Assembly: GCF_900104725.1 (NCBI RefSeq)
Contig: NZ_LT629758.1
Coordinates: 6,186,001 to 6,250,000, forward strand
Reading direction: 5' to 3'
Source: Actinoplanes derwentensis
Lineage (GTDB): Bacteria > Actinomycetota > Actinomycetes > Mycobacteriales > Micromonosporaceae
Length of the DNA: 64,000 nucleotides
Below the pieces are notes generated by a model that was not told where the DNA came from, ran no database searches, and saw nothing but the letters and a program-made list of their open reading frames with translations. Made by a program: the position numbers and the translations under genes. Of this stretch, positions 1,468 to 47,422 are shown piece by piece (within the stretch, counting starts at the first letter, position 1; every line of letters starts with the position of its first letter).

Positions 1468-1506
1468 GTGGTGAGTTGCGGTGCGAATCGAACCCGAACT
1501 CACCAC
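1468..1506. repeat. 39-bp palindromic repeat, copy A (single)
   Basis: Left arm GTGGTGAGTTGCGGTGCGA, one central base, right arm TCGAACCCGAACTCACCAC. The arms are nearly exact reverse complements. It lies in the gap between the convergent methyltransferase and rsmE genes. Seven related copies lie at about 2.4, 15.4 and 47.3 kb. Confidence 0.85.
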
Positions 1507-1542
1507 ACAGATCGGCCGTGGAACGTCGGGACCCGGGTGTCG

Positions 1543-2277
1543 TTACCAGCGGCCGAGGCGGGCGGAGAGCACCGCGAGGGCGGCGACTCCGGCGGTCGAC
1601 GTGCGCAGCACCGCGTCGCCCAGTTTGACCGGGATCGCGCCGGCCTCGCGGAAGGCGTCCAATTCGGGGTCGCTGATGCCACCCTCCGGGCCCACCACCA
1701 GGGCGATCTCGCCCCTCGGCGGCAAGGTCGCCGCGGTGAGCCGTTCGGTGGCCTCCTCGTGCAGCACGAACGCCGCCGTGACCCCGGCCAGGCGGGCCGC
1801 CACCTGTTTCGTCGAGCTGTCCGGGTCGCCGCCGACCACCGGTAGCCAGGAGCGCCGGGCCTGCTTGGCCGCCTCCCGGGCGGTCGCGGTCCACTTGTCG
1901 CGGGCTTTGAAGCCCCGGTCGCCGCGCCATTGGGTCACCGAGCGGGACGCCGCCCACGGCACGATCTCGTCGACGCCGACCTCGGTCATCGCCTGCACGG
2001 CCAGTTCGCCCCGGTCGCCTTTGGCGATGCCCTGCACCACCACCAGACGGGGGTCCGGTGCCGGATCCCGCGTGATGCTCAGTACTGCCACGTCGATGCT
2101 GCCCCGGCCCACGTTGGCGACTTCGGCCCGCGCGGTACCGCCCCGGCCGTCGGCGAGGATCAGCGCCTCCCCGGCGCGCAGCCGTTGCACGGTGGCGGCG
2201 TGGTGCCCTTCCGGGCCGTCCAGGGTGAACGACAGACCGGTGGGAAGACTCTCGACCAGGAACAGCGGTGCGGACAT
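1543..2277 (-). CDS. rsmE: 16S rRNA (uracil(1498)-N(3))-methyltransferase RsmE
   Basis: 244 residues from the ATG at 2277, which gives the usual N-terminus MSAPLFLVE; an upstream in-frame start at 2307 would add ten residues. A PUA-like N-terminal domain (GHHAATVQRLRAGE, LILADGRGG) is followed by a SPOUT methyltransferase domain with the knot motifs LVVGPEGGISDPE and KLGDAVLRTSTAG. The enzyme methylates N3 of U1498 of 16S rRNA in the assembled small subunit. It is last in the conserved actinobacterial order hrcA-dnaJ-rsmE, separated from dnaJ by about 400 bp that carries two palindromic repeats. Confidence 0.95.
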   Translation of the reverse strand: MSAPLFLVESLPTGLSFTLDGPEGHHAATVQRLRAGEALILADGRGGTARAEVANVGRGSIDVAVLSITRDPAPDPRLVVVQGIAKGDRGELAVQAMTEVGVDEIVPWAASRSVTQWRGDRGFKARDKWTATAREAAKQARRSWLPVVGGDPDSSTKQVAARLAGVTAAFVLHEEATERLTAATLPPRGEIALVVGPEGGISDPELDAFREAGAIPVKLGDAVLRTSTAGVAALAVLSARLGRW

Positions 2278-2344
2278 CCCGGAAACGCTACCGGCACCAT
2301 CCGGCACGGTCAGCCGGGCCCCGCGGTAACGAGTGCCTTTCAGC

Positions 2345-2444
2345 GTGGTGGGTTGCGGTTCGATTCGAACCCCGGCTCACCACGCAGTGGTACGGCAGTC
2401 GACGCGTGGTGACTTGGGGTTCGAATCGAACCGCAACTCACCAC
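2345..2444. repeat. Pair of 39-bp palindromic repeats, copies B and C
   Basis: Copy B is 2345-2383 and copy C is 2406-2444, start-to-start 61 bp with a 22-bp spacer. Copy C has left arm GTGGTGACTTGGGGTTCGA and right arm TCGAACCGCAACTCACCAC. They occupy the roughly 400-bp gap between dnaJ and rsmE. The rest of that gap (2278-2344 and 2445-2682) shows no gene or motif that I can support. Confidence 0.88.
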
Positions 2445-2682
2445 ACAGAACCGGACCGGAGTTGTTGGGGTGGAAAGGCCGCGACCACCTACGGACGTCG
2501 CCCCGGAGGGCTTCGCGTTCTGGGCGCGTCAGCGGCCAGCGAAGGTCGCCGGGGTCCCGGCGGGAGCGACGATCTGTACCCCCGCGAACGCACGACATCA
2601 AGAATTTGATCTGGATCTTCGCAGAGAGCCGTGAGGGACGGCGGCCGGAGCCGTCGTCCCTCGTCACGAAGTCGCGGAGCCG

Positions 2683-3819
2683 TCAGTGGCCGTTGAAGGC
2701 GTCTCGCATGCGGCTGAAGAAGCCGCCCTGTTTGCTCAGTTCGGCGACGTCCTCGCCGCGGGTCTTGGCGAAGTCGCGGAGCATGCGCTCCTGGTCGACG
2801 GTGAGTTTGGTCGGCGTCTTCACGTCCAGGTGCACGAAGAGGTCGCCACGGCCCTGGCCGCGCAGGTGCGGGACGCCCTTGCCTCGGATCCGGAGCGTGC
2901 TGGCCGGTTGGGTGCCCGGTTTGACCTCGATGTTCTCTTCGCCGTCGAGGGTCTTGATCGTCATCCGGGTACCGAGCGCGGCCGCGGTCATCGGCAGCGT
3001 CACCCGGCAGTGCAGGTCGTCACCCTTGCGGGAGTAGACGTCGTGCGGGCGCTCGTGGATCTCCACGTAGAGATCACCGGCCGTGCCGCCGCCGGGGCCG
3101 ACCTCGCCCTGCTGGGCCAGGCGGATCCGCATGCCGTCCTCGACACCCGCCGGGATCTTGACGGTGAGGGAACGGCGGGTCCGGATCCGGCCGTCACCGG
3201 CGCAGGTCGGGCACGGGTTCGGGACGGTCGTGCCGTGACCCTGGCAGTTCTGGCAGGGGCGGGACGAGACGACCTGGCCGAGGAAGGTGCGCTGCACCGA
3301 CTGGACCTCACCGCGACCCGAACAGACCTCACAGGTGGCCAGGTGGGTGCCGGGCGCGGTGCCGGCGCCGGAACACTGGGTGCAGAGCACCGCGGTGTCG
3401 ACGGTGATCGGCGCCTCGACGCCGAACGCGGTCTCCACCAGGTCCAGCTCCAGGCGCAGGATGGCGTCGGCGCCGGGTCGGGTGCGCGGGCGCGGGCCGC
3501 GGGATCCACCACCGGCGGCCGTGCCGAAGAACGCGTCCATGATGTCCTGGAAACCGACGAACGGTCCGGCTCCACCGGCACCGCCGGGCATGCCGCCACC
3601 CGGCGCGAGCGGGTCGCCACCGAGGTCGACCATCTGACGCTTCTGCTCGTCGGACAAGACCTCGTACGCCGCGTTGATCTCTTTGAACTTGTCGTGCGCC
3701 TCCGGATCCGGGTTCACATCCGGGTGAAACTGCCGAGCCAGTTTGCGGTAGGCACGCTTGATCTCGTCGTCGGTTGCCTCCCGGCTCACACCGAGAATTC
3801 CGTAATAGTCCTTGGCCAC
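2683..3819 (-). CDS. dnaJ: Molecular chaperone DnaJ
   Basis: 378 residues from a GTG at 3819 (VAKDYYGILG), preceded by GAGGA. The J domain covers about residues 4-70, with HPD at 32-34, and stimulates DnaK ATPase. A Gly-rich segment (GGGMPGGAGGAG) follows, then four CxxCxGxG zinc motifs (CTQCSGAG, CEVCSGRG, CQNCQGHG, CPTCAGDG) and the C-terminal substrate-binding domain. The open frame extends upstream to 3987, but that stretch runs into hrcA and has no similarity to DnaJ. The start lies 34 bp after the hrcA stop, so the two are probably cotranscribed under HrcA control. It corresponds to the second DnaJ (DnaJ2) of actinobacteria, the one not linked to dnaK. Confidence 0.97.
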   Translation of the reverse strand: MAKDYYGILGVSREATDDEIKRAYRKLARQFHPDVNPDPEAHDKFKEINAAYEVLSDEQKRQMVDLGGDPLAPGGGMPGGAGGAGPFVGFQDIMDAFFGTAAGGGSRGPRPRTRPGADAILRLELDLVETAFGVEAPITVDTAVLCTQCSGAGTAPGTHLATCEVCSGRGEVQSVQRTFLGQVVSSRPCQNCQGHGTTVPNPCPTCAGDGRIRTRRSLTVKIPAGVEDGMRIRLAQQGEVGPGGGTAGDLYVEIHERPHDVYSRKGDDLHCRVTLPMTAAALGTRMTIKTLDGEENIEVKPGTQPASTLRIRGKGVPHLRGQGRGDLFVHLDVKTPTKLTVDQERMLRDFAKTRGEDVAELSKQGGFFSRMRDAFNGH

Positions 3820-3853
3820 GGGGTTTGGAGTCCTCAATGTCTGCGCGAATCCG

Positions 3854-4876
3854 TCAATTCTGTGCCAACAGGTCGCCAACGTAGCGTGCGACCGCACGAA
3901 CGGTGGCGATAGTGCCGGGGTAGTCCATCCGGGTGGGACCCAGCACTCCGAGCCCCCCGACGATAGTCGTACCCGGGCCGTAGCCACTGCTCACCACGGA
4001 CGCCGACCGCAGGTTGTCGATCTGATTCTCGTCACCGATCAGGACCCGCGTGGTGCGGGGCTCCAGATCGCCGATGAGCTTGAGCAGGATGACCTCCTCC
4101 TCGAGGGCTTCGAGGACGGGCCGCAGTGTGCCCTGGAAGTCCAGCACACCGCCCCGTGTCAAGTTCGCCGTGCCCGCGAGGGCGAGGCGCTCCTCACTCC
4201 GCTCGACGAGTGTCTCCAGGAGCACCGAGGCCAGGCAGGTCATCGCGGCGCGGTGCCCGACGTCGCAGTCCTCCACGAGTTTCTGCACCAGGGCCGGGGT
4301 GTCGGCGAGGCGCTGACCGGCCAGTTTCTCGTTCACCCGGCGGCGCAGCTCCCAGACGTCACCGTCCTGCACGGGGCCGGGCAGCTCGACCAGCCGCTGC
4401 TCGACCCGGCCGGTGTCGGTGATCATCACGAGCATCAGGCGGGTCGTGGAGACCGGCACGAGCTCCAGATGGCGAACGGCGGAGCGGGACAGGCTCGGAT
4501 ATTGCACGACGGCTACCTGGCGGGTGAGCTGGGCCAGCAGCCGGACCGTACGATGCACCACGTCGTCGAGGTCGACGGCACCGATCATGAACCGCTCGAT
4601 GGCCCGGCGCTCGGCCGGACTGAGTGGCTTTATCCTGGTCAAGCGGTCGACGAAGAGCCGGTAACCGGCGTCGGTGGGCACCCGGCCGGCGCTGGTGTGC
4701 GGCTGCCGGATGTAGCCCTCCTCCTCCAGCACCGCCATGTCGTTGCGGACGGTGGCCGAGGAGACGCCGAGTTTGTGCCGGTCCACCAGGGCCTTGCTGC
4801 CGACCGGCTCCTGGGTTTCGACGTAGTCCTCGACGATTGCCCGGAGTACCTCGAGCTTGCGGTCATCCAGACTCAT
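3854..4876 (-). CDS. hrcA: Heat-inducible transcriptional repressor HrcA
   Basis: 340 residues from the ATG at 4876, preceded by a GGAGGGG ribosome binding site. The N-terminal winged helix holds the conserved stretch [20 protein letters not shown] and then [18 protein letters not shown]. The C-terminal part is GAF-like. HrcA binds CIRCE operators and represses heat-shock genes, with activity usually tied to GroEL. A CIRCE lies directly upstream at 4893-4919, so the hrcA-dnaJ unit should be autoregulated. The open frame continues to 5266, but the extension is antisense to the DUF4870 gene and is not conserved HrcA sequence. Confidence 0.97.
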
Positions 4877-4892
4877 ATGACCCCTCCCCCTG

Positions 4893-4919
4893 TTGGCACT
4901 CCTGCTAATAGAGTGCCAG
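4893..4919 (-). promoter_or_regulatory. CIRCE operator
   Basis: TTGGCACTC, nine bases, then GAGTGCCAG: an inverted repeat matching the CIRCE consensus (TTAGCACTC-N9-GAGTGCTAA) apart from one changed pair. It lies 16 bp upstream of the hrcA start. A candidate -10 (TAGACT on the minus strand, 4919-4924) touches its upstream edge, so bound HrcA would block transcription start. Confidence 0.95.
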
Positions 4920-5016
4920 TCTACGTCCCCGGCGGCGGCAATGCGATGATCGAAAGTACCGAGCGGGCTCAGATCTTGGGAGCGACATCGGTATCGACCG
5001 GCTGGGACCCGGGTCC

Positions 5017-5022
5017 TAGCGT
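5017..5022 (+). promoter_or_regulatory. Candidate -10 element (TAGCGT), leaderless promoter of the DUF4870 gene
   Basis: TAGCGT ends 7 nt before the ATG at 5030. No Shine-Dalgarno sequence lies in between. Confidence 0.35.
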
Positions 5023-5029
5023 GTATTTC

Positions 5030-5575
5030 ATGACCGAGCCTCCCCGCCCGCCGGATGACGACCCGACCGCGCCGTACCACCCGCAGGGCGGCTATCCACC
5101 GCCTCCGCCGCCGCCCTACACGCCGCCGCCTCCTTATGCGGATCCCTACGGCCAGCCGCAGTACGGGAAACAGCCTTACGACCAGCCGCAGTACGGCCCG
5201 CCCCAGTACGGATCCCCCTACCAGGCCGGCAGCCCGGACGAGCGCACCTGGGTCCTGATCGCCCACTTCGGTGGCGCCGCCGCGGCCTTCTTCGGTGGCG
5301 TGTTCATCGGCTGGCTCCCGCCGCTGGTCGCCTATCTGGCCCGCGGCAACCAGTCCCCGATCGTGCGTGCCGAATCACTCAAGGCGCTGAACTTCCAGCT
5401 CGTCTGGACGATCGTCGGGGTGGTCGGTTACGCGCTGATCGCCTGCGCCGGGCTGGGCCTGCTGTTCACCGCCGCGGCCTGGGTGATCGCGACCCTCTTC
5501 GGCGTGATCGCGGGGATCAAGGCGGTCAACAACGAGCCGTATCAGTATCCGATGACCTACCCGTTCATCAAGTAG
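5030..5575 (+). CDS. DUF4870 domain-containing membrane protein
   Basis: 181 residues. About 75 N-terminal residues are rich in Pro, Tyr and Gln, with repeated PQYG and PPPY units. The DUF4870 core follows: [37 protein letters not shown], then [11 protein letters not shown] and two further membrane segments. The N-terminal tail is probably cytoplasmic and disordered. The function of the family is unknown. A GTG nine bases upstream is also in frame. It is divergent from hrcA and its stop is 3 bp from the hemW stop. Confidence 0.85.
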
Positions 5576-5578
5576 TCG

Positions 5579-6781
5579 TCAGAGCACGTCGCGGATGACC
5601 GCGTCGGCGAGCAGGCGGCCGCGCAGCGTGAGCACGAGGCGGCCGTCGGCGTACGGCCCCGAGTCCAGCAGCCCGTCGGCCAGCGCCTGCGCGGCACCCG
5701 TGGCGTCGACCCGGTCCAGCGGGATGCCCTCGCGCAGCCGCACCCGGAGCATCACGTCCTCCATGTGCCGGTCGTCGCCGGACAACAGTTCCCGTGCGTG
5801 GCCCGGGGACAAACCGGAGGACAGGCGCTTGGCGTACGCCGACGGATGCTTCACGTTCCACCAGCGCACCCCTCCGACGTGGCTGTGCGCGCCCGGCCCG
5901 AGTCCCCACCAGTCGGCGCCGGTCCAGTAGAGCAGGTTGTGCCGGCACCGGCCGGCCTCGCCGCGGGACCAGTTGGACACCTCGTACCACTCGAAACCGG
6001 CCTCGGTGAGCGCCGCCTCGGCGGCCAGGTAGCGGTCGGCGGCGACATCGTCCTCCGGGTAGGGCAGTTCGCCCCGCCGCATCCGGGCGGCCATCCGGGT
6101 GCCGTCCTCGACGATCAGCGCGTAGGCGCTCACGTGGTCCACGCCCGCGTCGATCACCGCGCGCAGCGATCCGGCGAAGTCGTCCGGTGACTCGCCCGGA
6201 GTGCCGTAGATCAGGTCCAGGTTGACGTGCTCGAATCCGGCGTCGCGGGCTTCGGCCGCGGCCTGCGGTGCCCGGCCGGCGGTGTGCTTGCGGTCCAGGA
6301 TCCGCAGCACGTTCGGCGCGGTCGACTGCATGCCGAGCGAGATCCGGGTGAACCCGGCCTGGCGCAGCCGCCGCAGGTAGGCCGGGTCGACCGACTCCGG
6401 GTTGGCCTCGGTGGTCACCTCGGCGCCGGGGGCGAGCCCCCAGGTGCGGTCGATGCCGTCCAGGATCCGGCCCAGGTCGTCGGTGCTGAGCAGGGTGGGA
6501 GTGCCGCCGCCGACGAAGACGGTGTCGACCGGGCCGGGTTCGATCACCCGGGCGGCCAGGGCCAGCTCGGCGAGGACGGTGTCCGCGTACTCCTCGCGGC
6601 TCGCCCCGCCGCCCAGCTCGGTCGCGGTGTAGGTGTTGAAGTCGCAGTAGCCGCAGCGGCTCGCGCAGAACGGGACGTGGACGTAGACGGCGAACCCGTT
6701 CTTGCCCACCGCACGGGTGGCCTCGTCGGGGAGGGACCCGTCGTCGGGTACGGGTTCACCATCAACAGTTGCGCCGGCCAT
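5579..6781 (-). CDS. hemW: Radical SAM heme chaperone HemW
   Basis: 400 residues. The radical SAM motif CASRCGYC has cysteines at 39, 43 and 46, after VYVHVPFC. HemW signatures follow: FVGGGTPTLL, EANPESVD and RISLGMQS, plus a C-terminal HemN-like domain. HemW lacks the extra N-terminal residues of true coproporphyrinogen dehydrogenase HemN and is thought to carry heme to target proteins. In actinobacteria it normally sits between lepA and hrcA, as here, though about 4 kb of other genes separate it from lepA. It diverges from the enoyl-CoA hydratase gene. Confidence 0.95.
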   Translation of the reverse strand: MAGATVDGEPVPDDGSLPDEATRAVGKNGFAVYVHVPFCASRCGYCDFNTYTATELGGGASREEYADTVLAELALAARVIEPGPVDTVFVGGGTPTLLSTDDLGRILDGIDRTWGLAPGAEVTTEANPESVDPAYLRRLRQAGFTRISLGMQSTAPNVLRILDRKHTAGRAPQAAAEARDAGFEHVNLDLIYGTPGESPDDFAGSLRAVIDAGVDHVSAYALIVEDGTRMAARMRRGELPYPEDDVAADRYLAAEAALTEAGFEWYEVSNWSRGEAGRCRHNLLYWTGADWWGLGPGAHSHVGGVRWWNVKHPSAYAKRLSSGLSPGHARELLSGDDRHMEDVMLRVRLREGIPLDRVDATGAAQALADGLLDSGPYADGRLVLTLRGRLLADAVIRDVL

Positions 6782-6801
6782 GGACCCCAGTGTGCACGCA
6801 A

Positions 6802-6807
6802 TAGAGT
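6802..6807 (+). promoter_or_regulatory. Candidate -10 element (TAGAGT), leaderless promoter of the enoyl-CoA hydratase gene
   Basis: TAGAGT ends 6 nt before the ATG at 6814, with no Shine-Dalgarno sequence in the gap. Confidence 0.35.
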
Positions 6808-6813
6808 TCCGGG

Positions 6814-7578
6814 ATGGATCTGGTCGGTACCGTCACCGCCGCCGGCGTGACCACGATGACACTCGACAACCCCGCCAACCGCAACGCGCTCTCCACCGCG
6901 CTGCTCGAACAACTGCTCGGCGCCCTCGCCGCGGCCGCCGCCGATCCGGAGTGCCGGGTGGTGGTCCTCTCGCACACCGGCCCGGTCTTCTGCTCGGGCG
7001 TCGACCTGCAGGAGACGGCCGCCGCCGGGCCCGGTGACCGGCTGCCCGCCGAGATGCTGGCCGACGTGCTCGCGGTGCTCTGGGAGTACCCGAAACCGCT
7101 GGTGGCGCGGATCGGCGGCCCGGCCCGCGCCGGCGGCCTGGGCCTGATCGGGGCGGCCGACATCGCGGTCTGCACCCGGTCGGCCACGTTCGCCTTCACC
7201 GAGGTCCGGCTGGGGGTCATCCCGGCGGTGATCAGCGCCACCGTGTTGCCGCGCCTGGCACCCCGGGCGGCCGCCGACCTCTTCCTCACCGGTGACGTCT
7301 TCGCCGGGCCACGGGCCGAACAGATCGGCCTGGTCACTGCCGCCGTCGAGGAGGACCGGCTGGACGCCGTGGTGGCCGGCTACTGCGCGTCGCTTCTGCG
7401 CGGCGGTCCGCTCGCGCTCGCCGGGACCAAACAACTGCTTCGCCGTACGCCGGAGGCGTCGATCCGTGCCGACCTGGCGGATCTCGCGAACCGTTCGGCC
7501 GCACACTTCACGTCCGCCGAGGGGCGGGAGGGGGTGGCCGCGAGCCGGGAGAAGCGCGACCCCGGCTGGGTCGGATGA
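6814..7578 (+). CDS. Enoyl-CoA hydratase/isomerase family protein
   Basis: 254 residues of the crotonase fold. Visible signatures are LDNPANRNALS near the N-terminus, VVVLSHTGPVFCSGVDLQE (oxyanion-hole region, about residues 49-67) and RIGGPARAGGLGLIGAADIAV. In place of the GGGxEL stretch that holds a catalytic Glu in true hydratases it has GGLGLIG, so hydratase activity should not be assumed. Many actinobacterial relatives act in fatty acid or leucine degradation. It is a single gene divergent from hemW with a likely leaderless start. Confidence 0.88.
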   Translation: MDLVGTVTAAGVTTMTLDNPANRNALSTALLEQLLGALAAAAADPECRVVVLSHTGPVFCSGVDLQETAAAGPGDRLPAEMLADVLAVLWEYPKPLVARIGGPARAGGLGLIGAADIAVCTRSATFAFTEVRLGVIPAVISATVLPRLAPRAAADLFLTGDVFAGPRAEQIGLVTAAVEEDRLDAVVAGYCASLLRGGPLALAGTKQLLRRTPEASIRADLADLANRSAAHFTSAEGREGVAASREKRDPGWVG

Positions 7579-7701
7579 TCTTCAGGCATGATGATCGTCT
7601 TGACTCGATTCGCCCGACGCAGTGACGCCAGGCGGTGAGCGCTCGTTGTCTAGGCTTGGCGTCCGCCGGTTCGCGGGAGGTGCCGGAAAGGGGAGGTGAG
7701 C

Positions 7702-8562
7702 ATGCGCAAACGGACGATCGCGGGTGTGCTCGCCCTGCTCGGCGTCGCCGCCGTGACCGGTGTGGTCGTGGTGATCGACAACCTGGCCGACAACATCCAA
7801 CTGCCCCGGCTCATCCCGGAGTGCACGGTCAGCGCCGACGGCACGGTGACCCTGGACACCGTCCAGATGGCCAACGCGGCGACCATCGCCGCGGTCGGGG
7901 TCCGGCGTGGTCTGCCCGAGCAGGCGATCGTGGTCGCCCTGGCCACCGCGTTCCAGGAGTCCAAGCTGGAGAACCTGGACGACGGTGACCGCGACTCGGT
8001 CGGCCTCTTCCAGCAGCGGCCCAGTCAGGGCTGGGGCACGTTCGAGCAGATCAAGGACCCGCGGTATTCGGCCGGCAGGTTCTACTCGGCCCTGAAGAAG
8101 GTCAAGGGCTGGGAGGAGATGCGGGTCACCGACGCCGCACAGCGGGTGCAGCGGTCGGCGTACCCGAACGCCTACGAGAAGTGGGCCGACGAGTCACGGG
8201 TGCTGGCCGCCGCTCTGACCGGGCGGGCCACCGGCGCGGTCGACTGCACCGTTCCGGACGCTCCGGCGATCCGTGGTGCCGAGGCAGCCGCCGCCCTGCT
8301 GACCAGTCTCAAGCTGGACTGGGGCAAGAAGCTTGGCGGTCAGGCCCGCAGCGCCGAGACCGCCGGGCTGACCGTCGCGGTGGCCAGCTCGGACACCGGC
8401 TGGCGCTTCGCGCACTGGCTGGTCTCGCACGCTTCCGCCACCGGTCTCGAACGGGTACGTTTCGGTGATCTCGAGTGGCACGCCCCGAAGGGGAAGTGGC
8501 TGCCGGTCACCGACGGCAGTGGTGGCAACCAGGCTCAGGTGGTCGCCGAGGTGTTCCATTGA
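7702..8562 (+). CDS. Secreted or membrane-anchored lysozyme-like protein (putative)
   Basis: 286 residues from the ATG at 7702, which has GGGAGG at the right distance; the GTG at 7696 overlaps that site. One N-terminal hydrophobic segment (about residues 6-25) acts as anchor or signal. The body has AFQESKLENLDDGDRDSVGLFQQRP (Glu86, GLFQQRPSQGWG 101-112), resembling the catalytic Glu and GLxQ motif of lytic transglycosylase or goose-lysozyme folds. Relatives are common in actinobacteria and often carry uninformative names. Peptidoglycan cleavage is inferred from the motif only. The C-terminal 100 residues look like a separate small domain of unknown role. Confidence 0.65.
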   Translation: MRKRTIAGVLALLGVAAVTGVVVVIDNLADNIQLPRLIPECTVSADGTVTLDTVQMANAATIAAVGVRRGLPEQAIVVALATAFQESKLENLDDGDRDSVGLFQQRPSQGWGTFEQIKDPRYSAGRFYSALKKVKGWEEMRVTDAAQRVQRSAYPNAYEKWADESRVLAAALTGRATGAVDCTVPDAPAIRGAEAAAALLTSLKLDWGKKLGGQARSAETAGLTVAVASSDTGWRFAHWLVSHASATGLERVRFGDLEWHAPKGKWLPVTDGSGGNQAQVVAEVFH

Positions 8563-8676
8563 GATTTCTCCGGAACTATCGGTGACTATCCGCAATGTCC
8601 ATCTTGCTCACCCACAAGTTGCGCTCTGTATATGTCTACATGGACAGTCCGCAACCCTCCTGGTACTAAGTAGGTC

Positions 8677-10308
8677 GTGCTGACGGCGATCGGATGGGCT
8701 CTACTGGGGGCGGTGAGCGTCGGCGCCATTCTCTACGGTGTGCGCCGCCACCGCCCGGCTCGGCGTGCCCCCTGGCTGCTGCTGGCCGGCTCGCTCGCAG
8801 CGCTGGCCGCCGGCGACGTGCTGTATGAGTCGGACCGTCTGCAGGCCCTCGCCGACACCATCTACCTGGTGATGTTCGCCCTGGTCGCGATGAGCCTGCA
8901 CCAGTTCACCCGGGGTGGCTCGCTGCTTGTCGACCGGGCCCGCCTGATCGACCTGATCGCCTTCGCCTGCGCCGCGATGCTCGTCGTCTGGGTCTTCGTG
9001 ATCGGCTCGGCGAGCAGATTCCAGACCGTCTCCCCCGCCGATGTGATCGGTGACCTGCTGCTGATCGTGGTCGCGATCCGGCTGCTCACCGCCGACCGGC
9101 GCAACATCGCGGCGGGCCTGCTGGTCACCGGCGGCCTGGCGATGCTCACCGGCGACGTCCTCTACCCGCTCACCCGGGAGAACCCGGTCACCGAGCTGGC
9201 GTTCGTGGCGCTCTACCTGATGTGGGGCGCGTCCGCGTTGCACCCGTCGATGGCCCGGCTCACCGAACCGCAGCCGGTCCAGCTGTCGCCGTGGCGGTTC
9301 CGCGACACCACCCTGCTCGCTCTCTCCGCAGCCACCCCGCCGCTGGTGCTGGTGATCGAGGCGCTCTCCGGGACGGTCCACAACGGTGTCGTGATCGCCG
9401 TCACCGGCGCGATCACCCTGCTGCTCACCATCACCCGGCTCGCCGACGCCGTCCAGCAGCACAGCCAGGCCCTCACCCGCGAACGTGCGCTGCGCGCGGC
9501 GAACACCGCCCTGGTCGCGGCCGCCGACCCACCGGCCGTCGAGGCAGCGGTCCGGGCCGCGGTCGCCCATCTACTGCCCGCCGGCGCGGTCGGCCGGGTC
9601 GTTCTCGCCACCGACGACGCCGCGCTCACCGCCGCTCTCGACAGCTCGGGAGTGCCCGCCGGGGCCGGTACCCGAAGCTGGTGGACCGGTGATCACACTC
9701 TCATCTGTCCACTGCGTCTGGAACCACTCGCCGTGGCCCGGCCCAGTGGCGGTGCCCTGGTCGTCGCCGGCCGCCGGGACGCGCTCATCGCCGGACGGGA
9801 CTCGCTCGAAGTGCTGGCCGGGGAGACCGCACTGGCCCTGGACCGGATCACCCTGGTCGAGGCGGTCGGCCGCCGGGACAGCGACCTCTACCTGCGGGCG
9901 GTCACCGGCAACACCGCCGAGATCATGGCAGTGGTCGACTCCGACCACCGGATCCGGTACGCCAGCCCCGGGCTGCGCCGTCTGGCCGGCGTCGAGGAGA
10001 TGCCCCCGCTCACCGCTTTCGACGAGCTGATCCACCCCGACGATCAAGAGGCGGTACGCCGGGCGCTGCGAGCCGAGGGCGACGGCAAGGTGTTCTGTGC
10101 CCTGCCCCGGCCGGACGGCACTCAAGTGCTGGCCGAGGTTCGCTATCGGGATCTGCGCGCCGACCGGCTCGTCCAGGGCCTGGTGGTGACCCTGCGGGTG
10201 GTCGGCAGCCGCAGCGACGTGGTCGAACCGGCACCGCATCACGAGCATCAGGGTGGACTGCCGGCCTGGGAGAACCGCCGCAGTGCCCAGCACAAGTTCC
10301 GGTACTGA
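8677..10308 (+). CDS. Multi-pass membrane sensor with GAF-like and PAS domains, no output domain
   Basis: 543 residues from GTG 8677. The N-terminal 260 residues hold about seven to eight membrane segments, as in the sensor part of actinobacterial diguanylate cyclase proteins. A short helical linker (residues about 260-285) leads to a GAF-like domain (about 285-400). A PAS domain follows (EIMAVVDSDHRIRYASPGLRRL and LIHPDDQEAVRRAL). After the PAS only a short tail remains, ending NRRSAQHKFRY; no GGDEF, EAL, kinase or phosphatase domain follows. It may signal through a partner. The 114-bp upstream gap contains TGTCCAT and ATGGACA as a spaced inverted repeat. A terminator follows the gene. Confidence 0.75.
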   Translation: MLTAIGWALLGAVSVGAILYGVRRHRPARRAPWLLLAGSLAALAAGDVLYESDRLQALADTIYLVMFALVAMSLHQFTRGGSLLVDRARLIDLIAFACAAMLVVWVFVIGSASRFQTVSPADVIGDLLLIVVAIRLLTADRRNIAAGLLVTGGLAMLTGDVLYPLTRENPVTELAFVALYLMWGASALHPSMARLTEPQPVQLSPWRFRDTTLLALSAATPPLVLVIEALSGTVHNGVVIAVTGAITLLLTITRLADAVQQHSQALTRERALRAANTALVAAADPPAVEAAVRAAVAHLLPAGAVGRVVLATDDAALTAALDSSGVPAGAGTRSWWTGDHTLICPLRLEPLAVARPSGGALVVAGRRDALIAGRDSLEVLAGETALALDRITLVEAVGRRDSDLYLRAVTGNTAEIMAVVDSDHRIRYASPGLRRLAGVEEMPPLTAFDELIHPDDQEAVRRALRAEGDGKVFCALPRPDGTQVLAEVRYRDLRADRLVQGLVVTLRVVGSRSDVVEPAPHHEHQGGLPAWENRRSAQHKFRY

Positions 10309-10342
10309 AGTCCAGTGCTCTTCTCAAGAAAGCTTTCAGAAA

Positions 10343-10384
10343 CGCGAAATGCCGGCACCTCGTCGGGCCGGCATTCGCGTTTTT
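10343..10384 (+). terminator. Rho-independent terminator
   Basis: CGCGAAATGCCGGC pairs with GCCGGCATTCGCG (one bulged A) around an 10-nt loop, followed by TTTTT. It lies 35 bp after the sensor gene. Confidence 0.85.
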
Positions 10385-10426
10385 GAGTTGTCGAACCGCG
10401 GATCTTTTCGAGTTGTCGAACCGCGG
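10385..10426. repeat. Two tandem copies of a 25-bp unit
   Basis: GAGTTGTCGAACCGCGG occurs at 10385-10401 and 10410-10426, each preceded by a TTTT-containing stretch. It fills the gap between the sensor gene terminator and the GlsB-like gene, which are convergent. Confidence 0.7.
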
Positions 10427-10427
10427 G

Positions 10428-10709
10428 TCAGCGGGTCAGACGGCGACGGCTGCCGACGCCGGCGACCAGGGCGACACCGATGGCGGCCAGAACGACCTGG
10501 AACGCGAACTCGATCCAGTCGAAACCGGCGGTGTCGGCGACACCGGCGGCGCGGGCGATGACCGTGCCCAGCAGCGCGGCGACGACACCGACGACCATGG
10601 TCAGCCACAGCGGGATGTTCTGCTTGCCGGGTACCACGAGCCGGCCGAGAGCGCCGATGACGAGGCCGACGATCAGGGCCACGATGATTCCGGTGAGCGT
10701 GAACTCCAT
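10428..10709 (-). CDS. GlsB/YeaQ/YmgE family stress response membrane protein
   Basis: 93 residues with three predicted membrane helices. The N-terminal GIIVALIVGLVIGALGRLVVPGKQN is typical of the transglycosylase-associated (Transgly_assoc) family, and WLTMVVGVVAALLGT follows. A strong AGGAGG lies 7 nt before the ATG. Homologs are induced under stress, but the biochemical role is unknown. It is monocistronic, downstream of lepA on the same strand's opposite flank. Confidence 0.9.
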   Translation of the reverse strand: MEFTLTGIIVALIVGLVIGALGRLVVPGKQNIPLWLTMVVGVVAALLGTVIARAAGVADTAGFDWIEFAFQVVLAAIGVALVAGVGSRRRLTR

Positions 10710-10791
10710 GGGGTCCTCCTCGGGGGGTGGAGCTTATTGGTTGCGTCCGTCGAGCACCTCAATTCCCGACCCCCCGACGAATCAAACCGCC

Positions 10792-12672
10792 CTATTTTTT
10801 TGTCGCCCCCTTGGCGTCCGCGGAGTCAGAAGTGGAGAGCGCGGCGATGAAGGCCTCCTGGGGGACCTCCACCCGGCCGACCATCTTCATCCGCTTCTTG
10901 CCTTCCTTCTGCTTCTCCAGCAGCTTCCGCTTGCGGCTGATGTCACCGCCGTAACACTTCGCGAGCACGTCCTTGCGGATGGCACGGATCGTCTCGCGGG
11001 CGATGATCCGGGAGCCGATGGCCGCCTGGATCGGCACCTCGAACTGCTGGCGCGGAATGAGTTTCTGCAGCTTGGCGGCGATGCTGGTGCCGTAGGCGTA
11101 CGCCTTGTCCTTGTGCACGATCGCACTGAACGCGTCCACCGGCTCACCGTGCAGCAGGATGTCCACTTTCACCAGGTCGGCGGCCTGCTCACCGGAGGGC
11201 TCGTAGTCGAGTGACGCGTAGCCCTTGGTCTTGCTCTTCAACTGGTCGAAGAAGTCGAAGATGATCTCGGCGAGCGGGAGCATGTAGCGCAGCTCCACCC
11301 GTTCGGAGGACAGGTACTCCATGCCGAGCAGGTTGCCGCGACGGCTCTGGCACAGCTCCATGACGGCGCCCACGTACTCGTTCGGCACCAGGACCGTCGC
11401 TCGTACGACCGGCTCGTGGATCTCCGCGATCTTGCCCTCGGGGAACTCGCTCGGGTTCGTGACGATCGACTCTTTCGCGTCCTCGGTGAACACCTGGTAG
11501 ACCACGTTCGGCGCGGTGGAGATCAGGTCGAGGTTGAACTCGCGCTCCAGCCGCTCGCCGATGATCTCCAGGTGCAGCAGGCCCAGGTAACCGACCCGGA
11601 ACCCGAAACCGAGCGCCGCCGACGTCTCCGGCTCGTAAGTGAGCGCGGCGTCGTTCAGCTTCAGCTTGTCGAGGGCGTCACGCAGCGCCGGGTAGTCCGA
11701 GCCGTCGATCGGGTACAGACCCGAGTAGACCATCGGCCTCGGCTCCTTGTAACCGCCGAGCGCGTCCTTGGCCGGGCGGAGACTGCCGGTGATGGTGTCG
11801 CCGACCTTCGACTGGCGGACGTCCTTCACACCGGTGATCAGGTAACCGACCTCGCCGACACCGAGGGCGCCGGCTTTCTCCATCTCCGGCGAGACGACAC
11901 CGATCTCCAGCAGCTCGTGCACCGCGCCGGTGGACATCATCTTGATCTTGTCGCGTGCGCTGATCCGGCCGTCGATCACCCGCACGTAGGTGACGACGCC
12001 GCGATAGACGTCGTACACCGAGTCGAAGATCATCGCTCGGGCCGGGGCCTCCGCGTCGCCGACCGGCGCCACGAACTGCCGGACGATCTCGTCCAGCAGG
12101 TGATCGACGCCGACGCCGGTCTTGCCGGACACCCGCAGCACGTCGGACGGCTCACAGCCGATCAGCTTGGCCAGCTCCTCAGCGTACTTCTCCGGCTGCG
12201 CCGCCGGCAGGTCGATCTTGTTGAGCACCGGGATGATGCGGAGGTCGTTCTCCATCGCCAGGTACAGGTTGGCGAGAGTCTGCGCCTCGATCCCCTGCGC
12301 GGCGTCCACCAGCAGGACCGCACCCTCACAGGCCGCCAGACTGCGGGAGACCTCATAGGTGAAGTCGACGTGCCCCGGGGTGTCGATCATGTTGAGGACG
12401 GCGGTCTCACCCTGCTTGCCGCCCTCACGGACCGTCCAGGGCATCCGCACGGCCTGCGACTTGATGGTGATGCCGCGCTCGCGTTCGATGTCCATCCGGT
12501 CGAGGTACTGCGCGCGCATCTGGCGCGGGTCGACCACCCCGGTGATCTGCAACATCCGGTCGGCCAGCGTCGACTTGCCGTGGTCGATGTGGGCGATGAT
12601 GCAGAAGTTGCGGATGCGGCTGGGATCGGTCGATCCGATCACGTTCACGCCGGGGTCGAGCGGTCCAGGCAC
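10792..12672 (-). CDS. lepA: Elongation factor 4 (LepA)
   Basis: 626 residues from GTG 12672. The GTPase domain carries the P-loop AHIDHGKST (residues 27-35), the [10 protein letters not shown] switch I, DTPGH and NKIDLP. Translation-factor domains II and III follow, then the LepA-specific C-terminal domain ([23 protein letters not shown]). LepA binds ribosomes and promotes back-translocation or 30S biogenesis. In actinobacteria it lies between rpsT and hemW, as here. The gene ends in a run of AAA codons before TAG. Confidence 0.98.
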
Positions 12673-12883
12673 GGTTTTCCGTTCTTCTCGGGCTGGGCTA
12701 GCGCGGTCTGATCCCCCAGCGGCCCTCCGCTTCCGGCCTCTTCACTCGGCCGTCGGGCTGCTGGGTGACACCGGCACCGGGCCGGCGTCACCTATCGTCC
12801 CACGTCCGCGAGGGAAGCTCCGATCACACCCGTTCACGCGGCCCCGAACTGTGCCTCCCCCACGGTCCCGGCTCAGACCGCGC

Positions 12884-13417
12884 TCACATCGGGGGCTCCA
12901 GGAACAGGGCGGACAGCTTGGGCAGACGGCGGCGCATCTCGTCCTCGTTGTCGAAATCCCACAGGTCGGCCACCTCGGGCCTGGTCCGTGGTCGCGCGCC
13001 GGACGGCAGCGGCGACCCGGTGGCCTGCTGATAAGCCCGCTCCGCGATCCCGAGCACCTCCTCGGCCTCGAAGACCGCGCCGGTGTCGGCGGCCTCCTTG
13101 ATCACGGCCACGTTGGCGAGCACATCGGGTTTCTGCACGGCGGCGGCCACCGCCTTGCGCCCGTGCGCGATCAGCCAGCCCCGGAACGCGTCGAACCCGG
13201 CCTCGTCGGCACCACTGTTGATCAGATAGGCCGCGGCCCACAGATCCTCCGTGCCGGAGGCGACCATCACCTTCTCCAGGTGCAGGCCCCAGGCGACGAT
13301 CTCCTCGGGGTCGACGGCGGCCAGCTCGGCGACGGCACGCTCGGCCACCTCGGCGGGGGAAGCCGGCCGGTCGGCGGTGGCACGGTCGATGACCGCCCAG
13401 AAATCGTCGGTTCGCAT
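12884..13417 (-). CDS. DUF4240 domain-containing protein
   Basis: 177 residues. The N-terminal MRTDDFWAVIDRA and the central LWAAAYLINSGADEAGFDAFRGWLIAHGRKAV match the DUF4240 family, in which FW, LW.AAY and F..FR.WLI..G are conserved. The rest is helical with an acidic C-terminal region. The function is unknown. It lies divergently next to the phosphotransferase gene, 54 bp apart. Confidence 0.85.
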   Translation of the reverse strand: MRTDDFWAVIDRATADRPASPAEVAERAVAELAAVDPEEIVAWGLHLEKVMVASGTEDLWAAAYLINSGADEAGFDAFRGWLIAHGRKAVAAAVQKPDVLANVAVIKEAADTGAVFEAEEVLGIAERAYQQATGSPLPSGARPRTRPEVADLWDFDNEDEMRRRLPKLSALFLEPPM

Positions 13418-13470
13418 GCTGCGATCCTGCCAGTGCGGTACGACAATTCCACGGACGGCAGGATGGAGAC

Positions 13471-14481: not shown

Positions 14482-14492
14482 TCCCAGCCGTT

Positions 14493-14521
14493 TTGGCGGC
14501 TCGGAGGCGTGCTGGTAGTCT
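14493..14521 (+). promoter_or_regulatory. Promoter of rpsT
   Basis: -35 TTGGCG (14493-14498), 17-bp spacer, -10 TAGTCT (14516-14521), close to the housekeeping consensus of actinobacteria. It implies a 5' untranslated region of about 128 nt before rpsT. Confidence 0.65.
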
Positions 14522-14545
14522 GATTCCTCGCGTGTGGTGACACGC

Positions 14546-14575: not shown

Positions 14576-14655
14576 CGGCCTCGCCGGGTGAAACAGCCGC
14601 GCTGTGACCACTCGTTTGGACCATTTTTCCGAACTAGTCAGGACAAGGCTGTCGC

Positions 14656-15052: not shown

Positions 15053-15057
15053 CCCTC

Positions 15058-15185: not shown

Positions 15186-15392
15186 CTTTCGCGGACCGCC
15201 CCGGGCCTTCAAAGCCCCGCCGGTGACCGCCGACGCGAACCGCCAGCCCACGGCTCGCGGGGACCGCCTCCACCGGATGCAGGTCGAACGTCAAGGCGAA
15301 CCACCCACCCACGCTCGCCGACTCCCGCCACGAGATCACCCGCCCGGTCCAGCAGGTGCCCGTCCCGCGACCAGGACGCGAAGCCCATCTGT

Positions 15393-15552
15393 GTGGTGAC
15401 TTCGGGCGCGATCCGCACCACAGATCACCACACTATTGGCGGCGCCCATCTGTGTGGTTACTTCAGGCGCGATCCGCACCACAAGTCACCACGCCATCGA
15501 CAGCGCCCATCGCGTGGTGACTTCGGGCGCGATCTGAACCGTAGGTGACCAG
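15393..15552. repeat. Array of three 39-bp palindromic repeats, copies D, E and F
   Basis: Copies at 15393-15431, 15454-15492 and 15514-15552, start-to-start 61 and 60 bp. They are less perfect palindromes than the copies elsewhere. Left arms are close to GTGGTGACTTCGGGCGCGA and right arms end near CACCAC. Here the spacers also share a conserved GCGCCCATC or GAAGCCCATC before each copy, so this is a true tandem array of about 61-bp units. It lies between the convergent rpsT and the gene ending at 15665. Confidence 0.8.
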
Positions 15553-15664
15553 GCAGCCAGGACCACGAGACGTCTCTGGTCTCGCCAGGCGGCTGGTGTT
15601 TCGCCAGGCGGCTGGTCTACCTGAACATGCAGCAGCGGGCCTCAGACCGGCAGCAACCTACTGG

Positions 15665-26524: not shown

Positions 26525-26526
26525 GA

Positions 26527-35162: not shown

Positions 35163-35212
35163 AACCCGGCCCGGCAGTTAACTTTCTTTACAAGTAACTG
35201 CCGGGCCGGGTT
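35163..35212 (-). terminator. Rho-independent terminator of rne
   Basis: AACCCGGCCCGGCAGTTA and TAACTGCCGGGCCGGGTT are exact reverse complements, 18 bp each. On the minus strand the stem is followed by TTTTCC. It lies 9 bp after the rne stop. Confidence 0.92.
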
Positions 35213-45236: not shown

Positions 45237-45526
45237 GTGATCGTGGCGCGCCCGGGCATGCTGCGGCCCGCGGGAGCGCCCCTCCCTTCCTGCACGCGAA
45301 TGATGTGTCGCACACCCGGATAGTGACCCGGGACACGAACCAGCCCTTTCGAGCCGATCGATGCCGAGTCCGGGTAACCATACGACTCCGGAGCGTTTCG
45401 CACGACGCCCACCTTGTCCGCCATTCGTGTCCGCTGTCTCCCACGGGCCACCCCGTCCCACTGGCGCACCCGGCCTAACCTGGGCAAGGAGTCTCATGTC
45501 CGGGCACGCGGGAGGAGATCGAATTC

Positions 45527-47263
45527 ATGGCCGACCAGCAACCGGGTGACACCACACCGGTCGCCGGAATGCCCGACCCCACCCGAAACGCCGGATCCGG
45601 CGAGGGCGAGCCGCCGACCGCGGATCTGCCCGGGCGGTGGAGCGGGGCCGCGGCGGTTCCCGAGCAGGGTGGGCCGCGCCGCTCACGGTGGTCCCGCGTC
45701 AAAGACCGATTGGCTGGTACGGGTGGGCAAGCCGCCGACCTGGACGACCGCACCACGGTCCCCGCCGTCGACCCGTGGGCCGATCAGGACACTCCGGCCT
45801 GGCCGGACGTCTACACCACACCACCCGCCGACCCGACCCTCTTCGACGGCCCCGCCGAGCGGACTCTGTTCGAGACGTCCCCGGCGCCCTCGCCCGCCCT
45901 GGTGAACCGCACCCCGTTCGGAGCGTCCCCGTCGGCCTCTCCCCCGTCAGCCGAGCGCACGCTCTTCGAGACGTCTCCGGCGCCCTCATCGGGTGGTGCG
46001 GCGACCGCCCCGGCCTCGCGGGCGGCCGACTCGGCGCCGCGACCGTCCCTGCTGGATCGGGTCCGGCGCGAGACGGAACGGCTACGGAAGGAGACCTTGG
46101 CCGCCGCGCGCGAGCCGGTCAATCCGGCACCGGTACCGCCGCCACCACCGCCGTATCAGCCCGTCGGCCCGGCTCCCGGTACCTACCCGCCACCGGCCGG
46201 AGGCACCGGCCTGCCGCCGCTGGTCCGGCCGAAATGGCAGGTGTGGGGGCAGCAGGCCGCCGCGAGCAGCAGGGAAGCCGCGGCTGCGGCCCCCGAGCGA
46301 CTCCGTTCCTGGGGACAGCAGGCCACCGAAATGGGCCGGCAAGTCGCGGACAAGGGCCGCCAGCTCGCGGACCCAGGTCGCCAGAGCGCGGACCACAGCC
46401 GGCAAGTCGCAGACCCGAGTCGCCAGAGCGGGCACGTCGCAGATCCGAAGCGGCCGAGCGGGCAGGGCGCGGACCCGAGGCGGCATGCCGCCGACCAGAG
46501 CCGGCAAGTAGCGGACCCGAGGCGGCCGGGCGCCGGCCAAGGGCAGCAGGTCGCCGCCGGTGTGCCCGGGAAGCTGCGGGCGTGGCGGCGTAAGGCTGCT
46601 CCGGAGGCCGCCGCGCCGCCACGGATCCCGGTCCAGTCACGGCCGGGCGCGCGACCCTGGACGCCCACCCCGCCGAAGCCCCGGCGCCGGTTCCGGCGGT
46701 TGCGGCGGCTCGTTCTGGTGGTGACGGTGGTGATCGCGCTGTTCACGGTCGGGCCGTACGTTCAGCCGCACATCCCGGTGCTGAACCAGTATCCGGTGAC
46801 GGCGATCCTGCCGGACGGCTTCGCCGACCTGACGCTGCGGGACACCTCGGCCGGGCGGCAGGCCGCGCAGAAGCTGGCCGAACAGTTGCAGGAGGCGGGA
46901 GCCGGCAGCGACACGTTCGCCGGGATCTACGGCGACGGGAAGGGCAAACGGGTCACCGTCTTCGGTGTGACCGGGTTGCGCCTGACCCCGGGTTCCGACG
47001 TGGAGGCCCAACTCGGCCGGCTGTCCGACTCGCTGAAGCTGAAGAACGTGCAGTCCTACGACACCGGCGTGTTCGGCGTGCACCAGCGATGCGGAACCGG
47101 CCGCCTGGACGGCACATCGGTGGTCGCCTGCAGCTGGGCCGACCATGGCAGCCTGGCCACGGTCCTGCTCACCCGCCGTTCCCTGGAGGAGAGCGCCGAC
47201 CTGGTGTCCCGCCTGCGCAGCACGGTCCTGACCACCTCAGCCTCCCTGACCCCACTCGTCTGA
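45527..47263 (+). CDS. Membrane protein with repeat-rich cytoplasmic region and extracytoplasmic C-x12-C-x-WADHGSL domain
   Basis: 578 residues with a single membrane helix near 393-412 (RRLVLVVTVVIALFTVG). The N-terminal 390 residues are disordered. They include ERTLFETSPAP twice and, at about residues 266-325, some nine 7-10 residue repeats of RQVADPS type. The C-terminal 165 residues lie outside and form a compact domain (VTAILPDGFADLTLRD through RCGTGRLDGTSVVACSWADHGSL). The two cysteines probably pair. The gene at 61173 has the same C-terminal domain. The start is ATG 45527 with GGAGGAG-like purines upstream. Function unknown. Confidence 0.8.
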   Translation: MADQQPGDTTPVAGMPDPTRNAGSGEGEPPTADLPGRWSGAAAVPEQGGPRRSRWSRVKDRLAGTGGQAADLDDRTTVPAVDPWADQDTPAWPDVYTTPPADPTLFDGPAERTLFETSPAPSPALVNRTPFGASPSASPPSAERTLFETSPAPSSGGAATAPASRAADSAPRPSLLDRVRRETERLRKETLAAAREPVNPAPVPPPPPPYQPVGPAPGTYPPPAGGTGLPPLVRPKWQVWGQQAAASSREAAAAAPERLRSWGQQATEMGRQVADKGRQLADPGRQSADHSRQVADPSRQSGHVADPKRPSGQGADPRRHAADQSRQVADPRRPGAGQGQQVAAGVPGKLRAWRRKAAPEAAAPPRIPVQSRPGARPWTPTPPKPRRRFRRLRRLVLVVTVVIALFTVGPYVQPHIPVLNQYPVTAILPDGFADLTLRDTSAGRQAAQKLAEQLQEAGAGSDTFAGIYGDGKGKRVTVFGVTGLRLTPGSDVEAQLGRLSDSLKLKNVQSYDTGVFGVHQRCGTGRLDGTSVVACSWADHGSLATVLLTRRSLEESADLVSRLRSTVLTTSASLTPLV

Positions 47264-47322
47264 AACGACCAGCCCGGCGAGTTCAGGCACACCCCAGCCC
47301 TCGACCGACCGCGTCGCGTTGC

Positions 47323-47422
47323 GTGGTGAGCTGGGGTGCGATCCGAACCGCAACTCACCACACGTCCACTGCCGCACCACTGCGTGCTGAGCTGGGGTTC
47401 GGATCGAACCGCAACTCACCAC
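47323..47422. repeat. Pair of 39-bp palindromic repeats, copies G and H
   Basis: Copies at 47323-47361 and 47384-47422, start-to-start 61 bp with a 22-bp spacer. Copy G has left arm GTGGTGAGCTGGGGTGCGA and right arm CCGAACCGCAACTCACCAC. They lie in the roughly 310-bp gap between the convergent membrane protein gene and plsC. The rest of the gap shows nothing recognisable. Confidence 0.88.

What the first reader, a model, noticed from the sequence alone, without database searches (positions are those of the whole stretch)
1468..47422. Family of eight 39-bp palindromes with fixed 61-bp phasing
Copies lie at 1468, 2345, 2406, 15393, 15454, 15514, 47323 and 47384. All are exactly 39 bp: two 19-nt arms around one central base, consensus left arm near GTGGTGAGTTGGGGTTCGA. 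In every cluster the start-to-start distance is 61 bp (60 once), although spacer sequences differ between clusters. No loop separates the arms, so binding of a dimeric protein or DNA extrusion fits better than an RNA hairpin. The constant spacing of about six helical turns would place bound dimers on nearly the same face. I know no described family with these features.
Basis: seen in the sequence. Interest (0 to 1): 0.82.

Follow-up and report, generated by a model that had tools for sequence, protein, structure and literature searches.

The report
Dispersed gene-end palindromes, 61-bp phased
This bacterial genome carries a few hundred copies of a two-fold symmetric 43-letter DNA sequence, mostly just after the ends of genes and often repeated at an exact 61-letter step, and its pattern of variation looks more like a binding site for a paired protein, not yet identified, than like a hairpin.

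Summary
Observation confirmed. The eight palindromes belong to a genome-wide family: 171 places within 2 mismatches of a consensus with 24 specified positions, 0 control matches in this genome; about 320 copies extrapolated from 12 in an even 400-kb sample. Neighbouring copies are exactly 61 bp apart in 34 of 42 pairs. Three 'GTG'-motif relatives keep mostly 61-62 bp; 'TTG'-motif relatives do not.

Copies sit at gene 3' ends: 44 convergent, 33 tandem, 3 divergent of 80 typed clusters. Thirteen positions per arm are 76-100% conserved. At the free positions no steady demand for pairing appears: weak excess in the host, none in G186, clear deficit in G076. G-U is not favoured over A-C, and no T-run follows. 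This fits reading by a dimeric protein better than an RNA hairpin or cruciform.

Placement resembles REP elements, but the host has no Y1/RAYT transposase and no unpaired tag. The family is patchy (17 of 354 family genomes), changes motif 'dialect' between lineages, and a related form occurs in Micromonospora. Binding protein and function remain unproven.

The parts
1466..1508 (.). palindrome copy 1 (39-bp core 1468-1506), singleton between convergent genes (methyltransferase-domain gene 656-1432 + and RNA methyltransferase gene 1543-2277 -)
2343..2385 (.). palindrome copy 2 (core 2345-2383), first of a 2-copy array between the DnaJ-domain gene 2683-3819 (-) and the RNA methyltransferase gene 1543-2277 (-)
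2404..2446 (.). palindrome copy 3 (core 2406-2444), 61 bp after copy 2
15391..15433 (.). palindrome copy 4 (core 15393-15431), first of a 3-copy array between the ribosomal protein S20 gene 14656-14922 (+) and gene 15665-16909 (-, no Pfam match)
15452..15494 (.). palindrome copy 5 (core 15454-15492), 61 bp after copy 4
15512..15554 (.). palindrome copy 6 (core 15514-15552), 60 bp after copy 5, outer arm the weaker one
47321..47363 (.). palindrome copy 7 (core 47323-47361), first of a 2-copy array between convergent genes 45527-47263 (+, no Pfam match) and acyltransferase-domain gene 47575-48252 (-)
47382..47424 (.). palindrome copy 8 (core 47384-47422), 61 bp after copy 7

Best explanation
The elements are long two-fold symmetric DNA-binding sites (half-site roughly GY-GTG-NN-GA-N-TT-NN-GG-NN-CG around a 3-bp centre) for an unidentified dimeric protein. 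They are dispersed as units of about 43 bp and kept at gene 3' ends. Neighbouring dimers bind 61 bp apart on nearly the same DNA face, probably cooperatively. The most likely job is a two-way barrier between transcription units: a roadblock or supercoil insulator that limits read-through, above all between convergent genes. Shown here: the family, the phase, the gene-end placement, conserved bases without a steady demand for pairing, and lineage-specific motif changes. Inferred: the protein, the cooperativity and the barrier function.
For: Family size with no control match in this genome. Exact 61-bp phase here and, among pairs under 200 bp in fetched segments, in G186 (26 of 28), G194 (8 of 8) and G076 (20 at 61, 13 at 62, of 34). 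Thirteen positions per arm at 76-100%, ten of them at 90% or more. Free columns 14, 17 and 18 of the 43-column frame show no pairing excess in G000. Stem pairing over columns 1-18: G076 772 against 822 +/- 7 expected, and 350 against 368 +/- 4.5 with one copy per cluster; G186 626 against 634 +/- 6.5, and 270 against 265 +/- 4. In tandem contexts mismatches are 45 G-U and 62 A-C, no RNA wobble preference. Context 44 convergent, 33 tandem, 3 divergent against 15, 38 and 27 expected by intergenic length; 30 of 33 tandem clusters nearer the stop than the start; median 25 bp from flanking stops. Few low-scoring copies in the segments read: 8 of 129 under 40 bits.
Against: No protein found. In G000 itself pairing is above shuffles in three of four sets: 1975 against 1911 +/- 12 (121 copies), 1184 against 1159.5 +/- 8.9 (71) and 1417 against 1361 +/- 10 (85 first copies), not in the even sample plus window (315 against 312 +/- 5, 20 copies). 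The G076 deficit could stem from copying of one asymmetric ancestor. Not seen in most relatives, so dispensable. In the syntenic region few places match. Inner and outer arms of array ends do not differ overall (inner better in 29 of 60, p 0.48), so cooperativity is not supported by arm quality in general. Low-scoring copies may be under-counted: segments were mostly chosen around strong hits, and copies with indels are missed by the matrix (two weak ones, six in-phase ones). Gene-end placement can arise because insertions elsewhere are weeded out. After S20 a hairpin with a short T-run (about 15003-15053, read by eye) precedes the array, so the array need not be the main stop there.
Confidence: 0.4

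Rival explanations
1. Selfish or MITE-like palindrome: the arms are recognition ends of an unidentified transposase or recombinase (not a RAYT) that copies the 43-bp unit; gene-end location only reflects where insertions are tolerated, and arrays come from tandem duplication.
For: Patchy, lineage-specific expansion (17 of 354 genomes); carriers are scattered over a single-gene tree of 30 genomes (753 columns, weak inner forks, no formal clade test); the commonest end points of alignments between distant copies lie within 5 bp of the 39-mer (left end 3,516 of 7,427 alignments); seven adjacent spacer pairs in arrays of three or more are 12-21 of 22 identical against 8.5 by chance, hence tandem duplication; few positions shared with relatives.
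Against: No Y1 transposase found in G000, G161, G076, G143, G188 or G194; half-sites lying alone and out of array phase are near chance (3 low-scoring in 1.05 Mb, shuffled control 1), so no element with such ends was met in the tenth of the genome read; few low-scoring copies; spacing kept in two-copy arrays whose spacer no longer resembles either flank. Other transposase families were not searched.
Confidence: 0.33
2. RNA hairpins: 3' terminators or mRNA-end stabilisers, possibly Rho-assisted.
For: Gene-end position; all eight window copies fold better than most shuffles (z -2.1 to -6.9); weak pairing excess in G000, mainly columns 10 and 13 with smaller ones at 2 and 8 in the 71-copy set.
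Against: No pairing excess in G186 and a deficit in G076; A-C at least as common as G-U; T content after the element 15.7% against 15.0% background, 1 of 176 flanks with 5 T in 8; the simple terminator scan of window 1-20000 flags none of the six copies there, though that scan found no more than its shuffles.
Confidence: 0.16
3. Topology sites like E. coli BIMEs: docking sites for gyrase or a nucleoid protein at the positive-supercoil side of genes.
For: Convergent-gene enrichment; regular arrays; BIME-2 binding by gyrase (PMC2817692, passage).
Against: A 13-position conserved half-site is long for a relaxed gyrase preference (recalled); gyrase is universal (recalled) but the family is patchy.
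Confidence: 0.08

Closest known systems
REP elements / REPINs with RAYT transposases
   Same: Short palindromes, often more than 100 copies per genome, some species-specific, between convergent and unidirectional genes, downstream of coding regions (PMC3733652, abstract and passages; PMC2817692, listing abstract and passages). The first letters GTGG resemble tags of some Pseudomonas REPs (table passage of PMC2817692).
   Different: Here GTGG is paired with CCAC inside the palindrome, so there is no unpaired tag; only a 1-3-nt centre; free arm positions show no steady pairing; no Y1 transposase found in the host. The main text of PMC3733652 has no word beginning Actino-, Micromonospora or Streptomyces.
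BIMEs (REP clusters of enterobacteria)
   Same: Regularly spaced palindromes in extragenic space.
   Different: BIMEs alternate REP orientation (PMC2817692, abstract in the listing); here a symmetric unit repeats at 61 bp.
Intrinsic (Rho-independent) terminators
   Same: Location just after stop codons; two-fold symmetry.
   Different: No T-run, one shared sequence across the genome, no wobble preference.
MITEs / terminal-inverted-repeat mini-transposons
   Same: Symmetric, non-coding, dispersed.
   Different: No interior; conservation fades outward rather than ending sharply; no target duplication could be defined.
DNA uptake sequences with genus dialects (recalled, no call)
   Same: Lineage-specific 'dialects'; inverted pairs at gene ends.
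   Different: Far longer and fewer; half-sites are almost always paired here.

Membership tests
REP / REPIN-RAYT | RAYT (Y1_Tnp, PF01797) gene in the genome | tested here: not met
   0 matches in G000 and in carriers G161, G076, G143, G188, G194; present in 21 of 67 genus genomes, including carrier G186
REP / REPIN-RAYT | unpaired tag (GTAG, CGTC or variant) at one end | tested here: not met
   ends are symmetric GY...RC and the GTGG letters pair with CCAC
REP / REPIN-RAYT | extragenic, mostly convergent/unidirectional contexts | tested here: met
   44 convergent, 33 tandem, 3 divergent, 6 overlapping a called gene, 2 at segment edges, of 88 clusters
REP / REPIN-RAYT | 20-40 bp, high copy, lineage-specific | tested here: met
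   39-43 bp; 171 places within 2 mismatches; 17 of 354 family genomes
Intrinsic terminator | GC-rich hairpin followed by T-run | tested here: not met
   T 15.7% in 176 flanks, one with 5 T in 8; none flagged at 1466-2446 or 15391-15554
RNA hairpin element | compensatory pairing across copies | tested here: inconclusive
   G000 weak excess in three of four sets; G186 none; G076 deficit; G194 deficit on 7 related copies
Dimeric protein binding site | symmetric conserved positions with independently varying free positions | tested here: met
   columns 14, 17 and 18 in G000 and the stem columns of G186 and G076; not met at columns 10 and 13 in G000
Dimeric protein binding site | a protein that binds it | not testable with these tools
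   no recurring candidate among genes beside divergent or in-gene sites
CRISPR array | near-identical repeats with unrelated spacers at one or few loci beside cas genes | tested here: not met
   repeats diverge, spacers inside longer arrays resemble each other, 88 scattered clusters in 1.05 Mb; cas genes were not searched
Known RNA family | Rfam match at the element | tested here: not met
   window and 14 loci give no match at a palindrome above gathering score

The most novel reading that the evidence does not exclude
A gene-boundary system of the Micromonosporaceae: a long-site dimeric DNA-binding protein, co-evolving with its sites into lineage 'dialects' (GTGGTGA, GTGTCGA, GTGGGGA, GATC-TTGGCGA and others), holds stacked dimers, at 61-bp steps in the GTG dialect, at gene ends and acts as a two-way transcription and supercoil barrier. 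It would be a bacterial counterpart of protein-roadblock termination, and its loss would leave relic-only genomes such as G220.
Probability: 0.21. Interest if true: 0.86.

Novelty: new variant of a known kind. Interest (0 to 1): 0.6.

Why it matters
Dispersed gene-end palindromes are usually explained by RAYT transposition or RNA hairpins. Here a large family in a genome without a detected RAYT shows recognition-site logic more than pairing logic, with an exact phase kept in several species. If a protein holds hundreds of gene ends in these actinomycetes, it would bear on how transcription is bounded in GC-rich genomes, and the dialect switches would give a natural record of protein-DNA co-evolution.

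Tried and rejected
RAYT/REP: Y1_Tnp not found in the host; other transposase families were not searched. Chance: rejected by controls. Plasmid or phage origin: no match for a 126-bp array query in either collection. Terminal repeats of an IS: half-sites alone and out of array phase are near chance. Finding the binding protein from genes at divergent or in-gene sites: no recurring DNA-binding gene. Positional conservation through orthologous genes: underpowered; 3 of 4 relative genes with a 3' site and a fetched ortholog had a 3' site here too, against 5 of 21 without (pooled: G076 8, G186 15, G194 2 orthologs). Empty-site analysis in the sister G204: the gap there is 7 bp with no alignable remnant, and the 17.4-kb contig ends soon after. 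Literature: searches listed no description of this family; the library lacks most subscription papers. Covariation on the first 31 copies looked null; the larger G000 sets show a weak excess, and copies found with the pairing-aware model are biased towards pairing. On checking, the G186 deficit proved to come mostly from the centre column; one search repeats the test on stem columns only, and I lowered the best explanation from 0.42 to 0.40, the novel case from 0.22 to 0.21 and the interest from 0.62 to 0.60, and raised the hairpin from 0.14 to 0.16, for that and for the G000 excess.
Full report
CHECK. The window lies at 6,186,001-6,250,000 of a 10.65-Mb single-contig genome (G000). It shares its family with a genus that I take to be Micromonospora, because a 39-mer listed for handle G144 is identical to one in a named Micromonospora halophytica record. 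The genus of G000 is probably Actinoplanes (inference; no call names it). All eight palindromes are present, with in-cluster distances 61, 61, 60 and 61. A position matrix built from copies and applied to 84 merged segments (1.054 Mb: an even 20 x 20-kb sample, the window, and segments chosen around hits) finds 129 copies in 88 clusters (59 single, 19 double, 8 triple, 2 quadruple) and none above the same threshold in block-shuffled sequence. The even sample alone holds 12 copies in 400 kb, about 320 per genome, with a wide error; two further weak copies there were seen only by the covariance model. Strict whole-genome counts are 171 on either strand (the same palindromic places) with 0 controls in G000.

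PHASE. Of 42 neighbouring pairs under 150 bp, 34 are 61 bp and one 60. In fetched segments of relatives, pairs under 200 bp are: G186 26 of 28 at 61; G194 8 of 8 at 61; G076 20 at 61 and 13 at 62, of 34. Smaller looks: G140 61 and 61; G161 63, and 62 and 61 in another array; G188 59; G143 60. In relatives with the TTG dialect the phase is not 61: G090 87-101, G229 141, G176 72, 83 and 132. So the 61-bp phase belongs to the GTG dialect. Seven adjacent spacer pairs in arrays of three or more copies are alike (12-21 of 22 bases against 8.5 by chance), so arrays grow by tandem duplication. In many two-copy arrays the spacer no longer resembles either flank, yet its length is kept.

UNIT. Symmetry extends to 43 bp (GY...RC), with a weak C-rich preference further out. 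The commonest end points of alignments between distant copies lie within 5 bp of the 39-mer (left end 3,516 and right end 3,177 of 7,427 alignments; other end points are array-sized steps, low-identity extensions or partial matches). Half-sites outside the listed palindromes are rare: 10 in 1.05 Mb, of which 7 are in 61-bp phase with an array (two of these are the arms of one copy with a centre insertion) and 3 low-scoring; the shuffled control gave 1. In all 8 array-end copies with one destroyed arm the outer arm is the one lost (seen after the fact; one of the 8 is the centre insertion), but over all 60 array ends inner arms are not better than outer ones (29 of 60, p 0.48).

GENE CONTEXT. 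With a codon-usage gene caller written here (916 genes, not curated), 88 clusters split into 44 convergent, 33 tandem, 3 divergent, 6 overlapping a called gene and 2 at segment edges. Intergenic length in the same segments predicts 15, 38 and 27 for the 80 typed clusters (chi-square p about 1e-17). In tandem gaps 30 of 33 clusters are nearer the upstream stop than the downstream start (my count of the rows; p 1.4e-6). In the part not chosen by hits (even sample plus window, 11 clusters) the split is 7 convergent, 2 tandem, 1 divergent, 1 in a gene (my count of the same rows). G186: 10 convergent, 4 tandem, 2 divergent, 1 in gene, 1 edge, of 18. G076: 18 convergent, 5 tandem, 1 divergent, 2 in gene, of 26. 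G194: 1 convergent, 1 tandem.

PAIRING OR READING? If the elements acted as hairpins or cruciforms, the free positions of the two arms should match each other. In G000, complementary cells are 1975 against 1911 +/- 12 shuffled in 121 copies (partly chosen by a pairing-aware model); 1184 against 1159.5 +/- 8.9 in 71 copies chosen by a pattern blind to columns 10, 13, 14, 17 and 18; 1417 against 1361 +/- 10 in 85 first copies of clusters; 315 against 312 +/- 5 in 20 copies of the even sample plus window. In the 71-copy set the excess comes mainly from columns 10 and 13, with smaller ones at 2 and 8; columns 14, 17 and 18 show none. On the 18 stem columns of the 39-mer, G076 (58 distinct copies) has 772 against 822 +/- 7, and 350 against 368 +/- 4.5 with one copy per cluster (26); G186 (44) has 626 against 634 +/- 6.5, and 270 against 265 +/- 4 (18); G194 (7, two arrays) 83 against 91 +/- 3. 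The first version of this test counted the centre column, which made G186 look below expectation. Conserved positions are 76-100% in G000 and 80-100% in G186 and G076. Oriented by transcription in tandem contexts, mismatches are 45 G-U and 62 A-C. Taken together, bases are conserved in all three lineages tested, while pairing of free positions is weakly favoured in one, neutral in a second and avoided in a third. That fits a symmetric site read base by base, as by a dimer, better than a hairpin. Limits: shuffles ignore common descent, and the RNA hairpin remains thermodynamically possible.

DISTRIBUTION. The generic GTG consensus (<=2 mismatches) is found in 17 of 354 family genomes: G076 299, G186 286, G000 171, G194 166, G188 33, G143 23, G161 14, G140 5, G220 4, and 1-5 in eight others. 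Carriers are scattered over a single-gene tree of 30 genomes with many weak forks. The sister G204 has 2 places. The TTG consensus is found in 28 of 354 genomes in 5 genera (partly the same places, since <=2 mismatches let GTG copies through; control 0 in the rows shown). Named Micromonospora records carry it: 8 stretches in 6 species or strains, with GATC on the left in 7 of 8 and on the right in 7 of 8. An exact search for the G000 dialect in named genomes found nothing, but records of this genome or one very near may be left out there. The conserved skeleton is TGNNGANTTNNNGNNCG-NNN-complement (my reading). Over the syntenic window, stretches of seven relatives were read (G204 only to window position 2304; G188, G029, G230, G220, G186, G076 further). 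The 1468 place had no site in those that cover it; the 2345 place has an array only in G186; the 15393 place has a decayed array only in G220 (by eye); the 47323 place was covered only in G029 and G220, without a site. Turnover is therefore high.

NOT A REP, NOT A CLASSICAL TERMINATOR. Y1_Tnp was not found in G000 or in five other carriers, and was found in carrier G186. Flank T content equals background. Rfam has no match at the elements.

MECHANISM. Two ideas stay close: a protein-bound gene-end barrier, and a selfish palindrome moved by an unknown recombinase that is itself the dimeric reader; both can be true together. I lean to the barrier because low-scoring copies are few in what was read (8 of 129 below 40 bits, with the sampling caveat given above), the spacing survives spacer divergence, and placement is tightly gene-end. 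Against it stand dispensability across the genus and the missing protein.

LITERATURE. Seen: PMC3733652 (abstract, section list, passages), PMC2817692 (abstract start in a listing, passages), PMC6060812 (passages), search listings for the rest.

Noticed in passing
window 35163-35212: A 50-bp hairpin with arms of about 20 nt; hairpins of the same layout lie at roughly matching places in G188, G029, G230 and G220, with changed but still paired arms in G188. Only matches far below Rfam gathering scores.
   Followed up: partly
window about 2460-2680 and the matching gaps in L098, L099, L105, L106, L107, L111, L116: A similar non-coding block between the DnaJ-domain and RNA-methyltransferase genes (motif near GGCGGGAGCGACG) in several relatives whose gaps otherwise look unalike by eye; no Rfam match in 2380-2700. 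Could be an unlisted RNA.
   Followed up: partly
L099 and L093, gap between the two methyltransferase genes: A different palindrome type, CGGCTGGC...GCCAGCCG with a loop and differing inner arms, at the same gene end in G186 and G230.
   Followed up: no
window 15060-15170: Imperfect tandem repeats around CCCGTACGAA downstream of the S20 gene.
   Followed up: no
G186 contigs C110, C82, C52; G194 contig C40: Some sites lie within 1 kb of a contig end, as if the arrays hamper assembly.
   Followed up: no
L060 700-766: Rfam Transposase-2 RNA (RF03015), 64 bits, about 0.7 kb from a palindrome.
   Followed up: no
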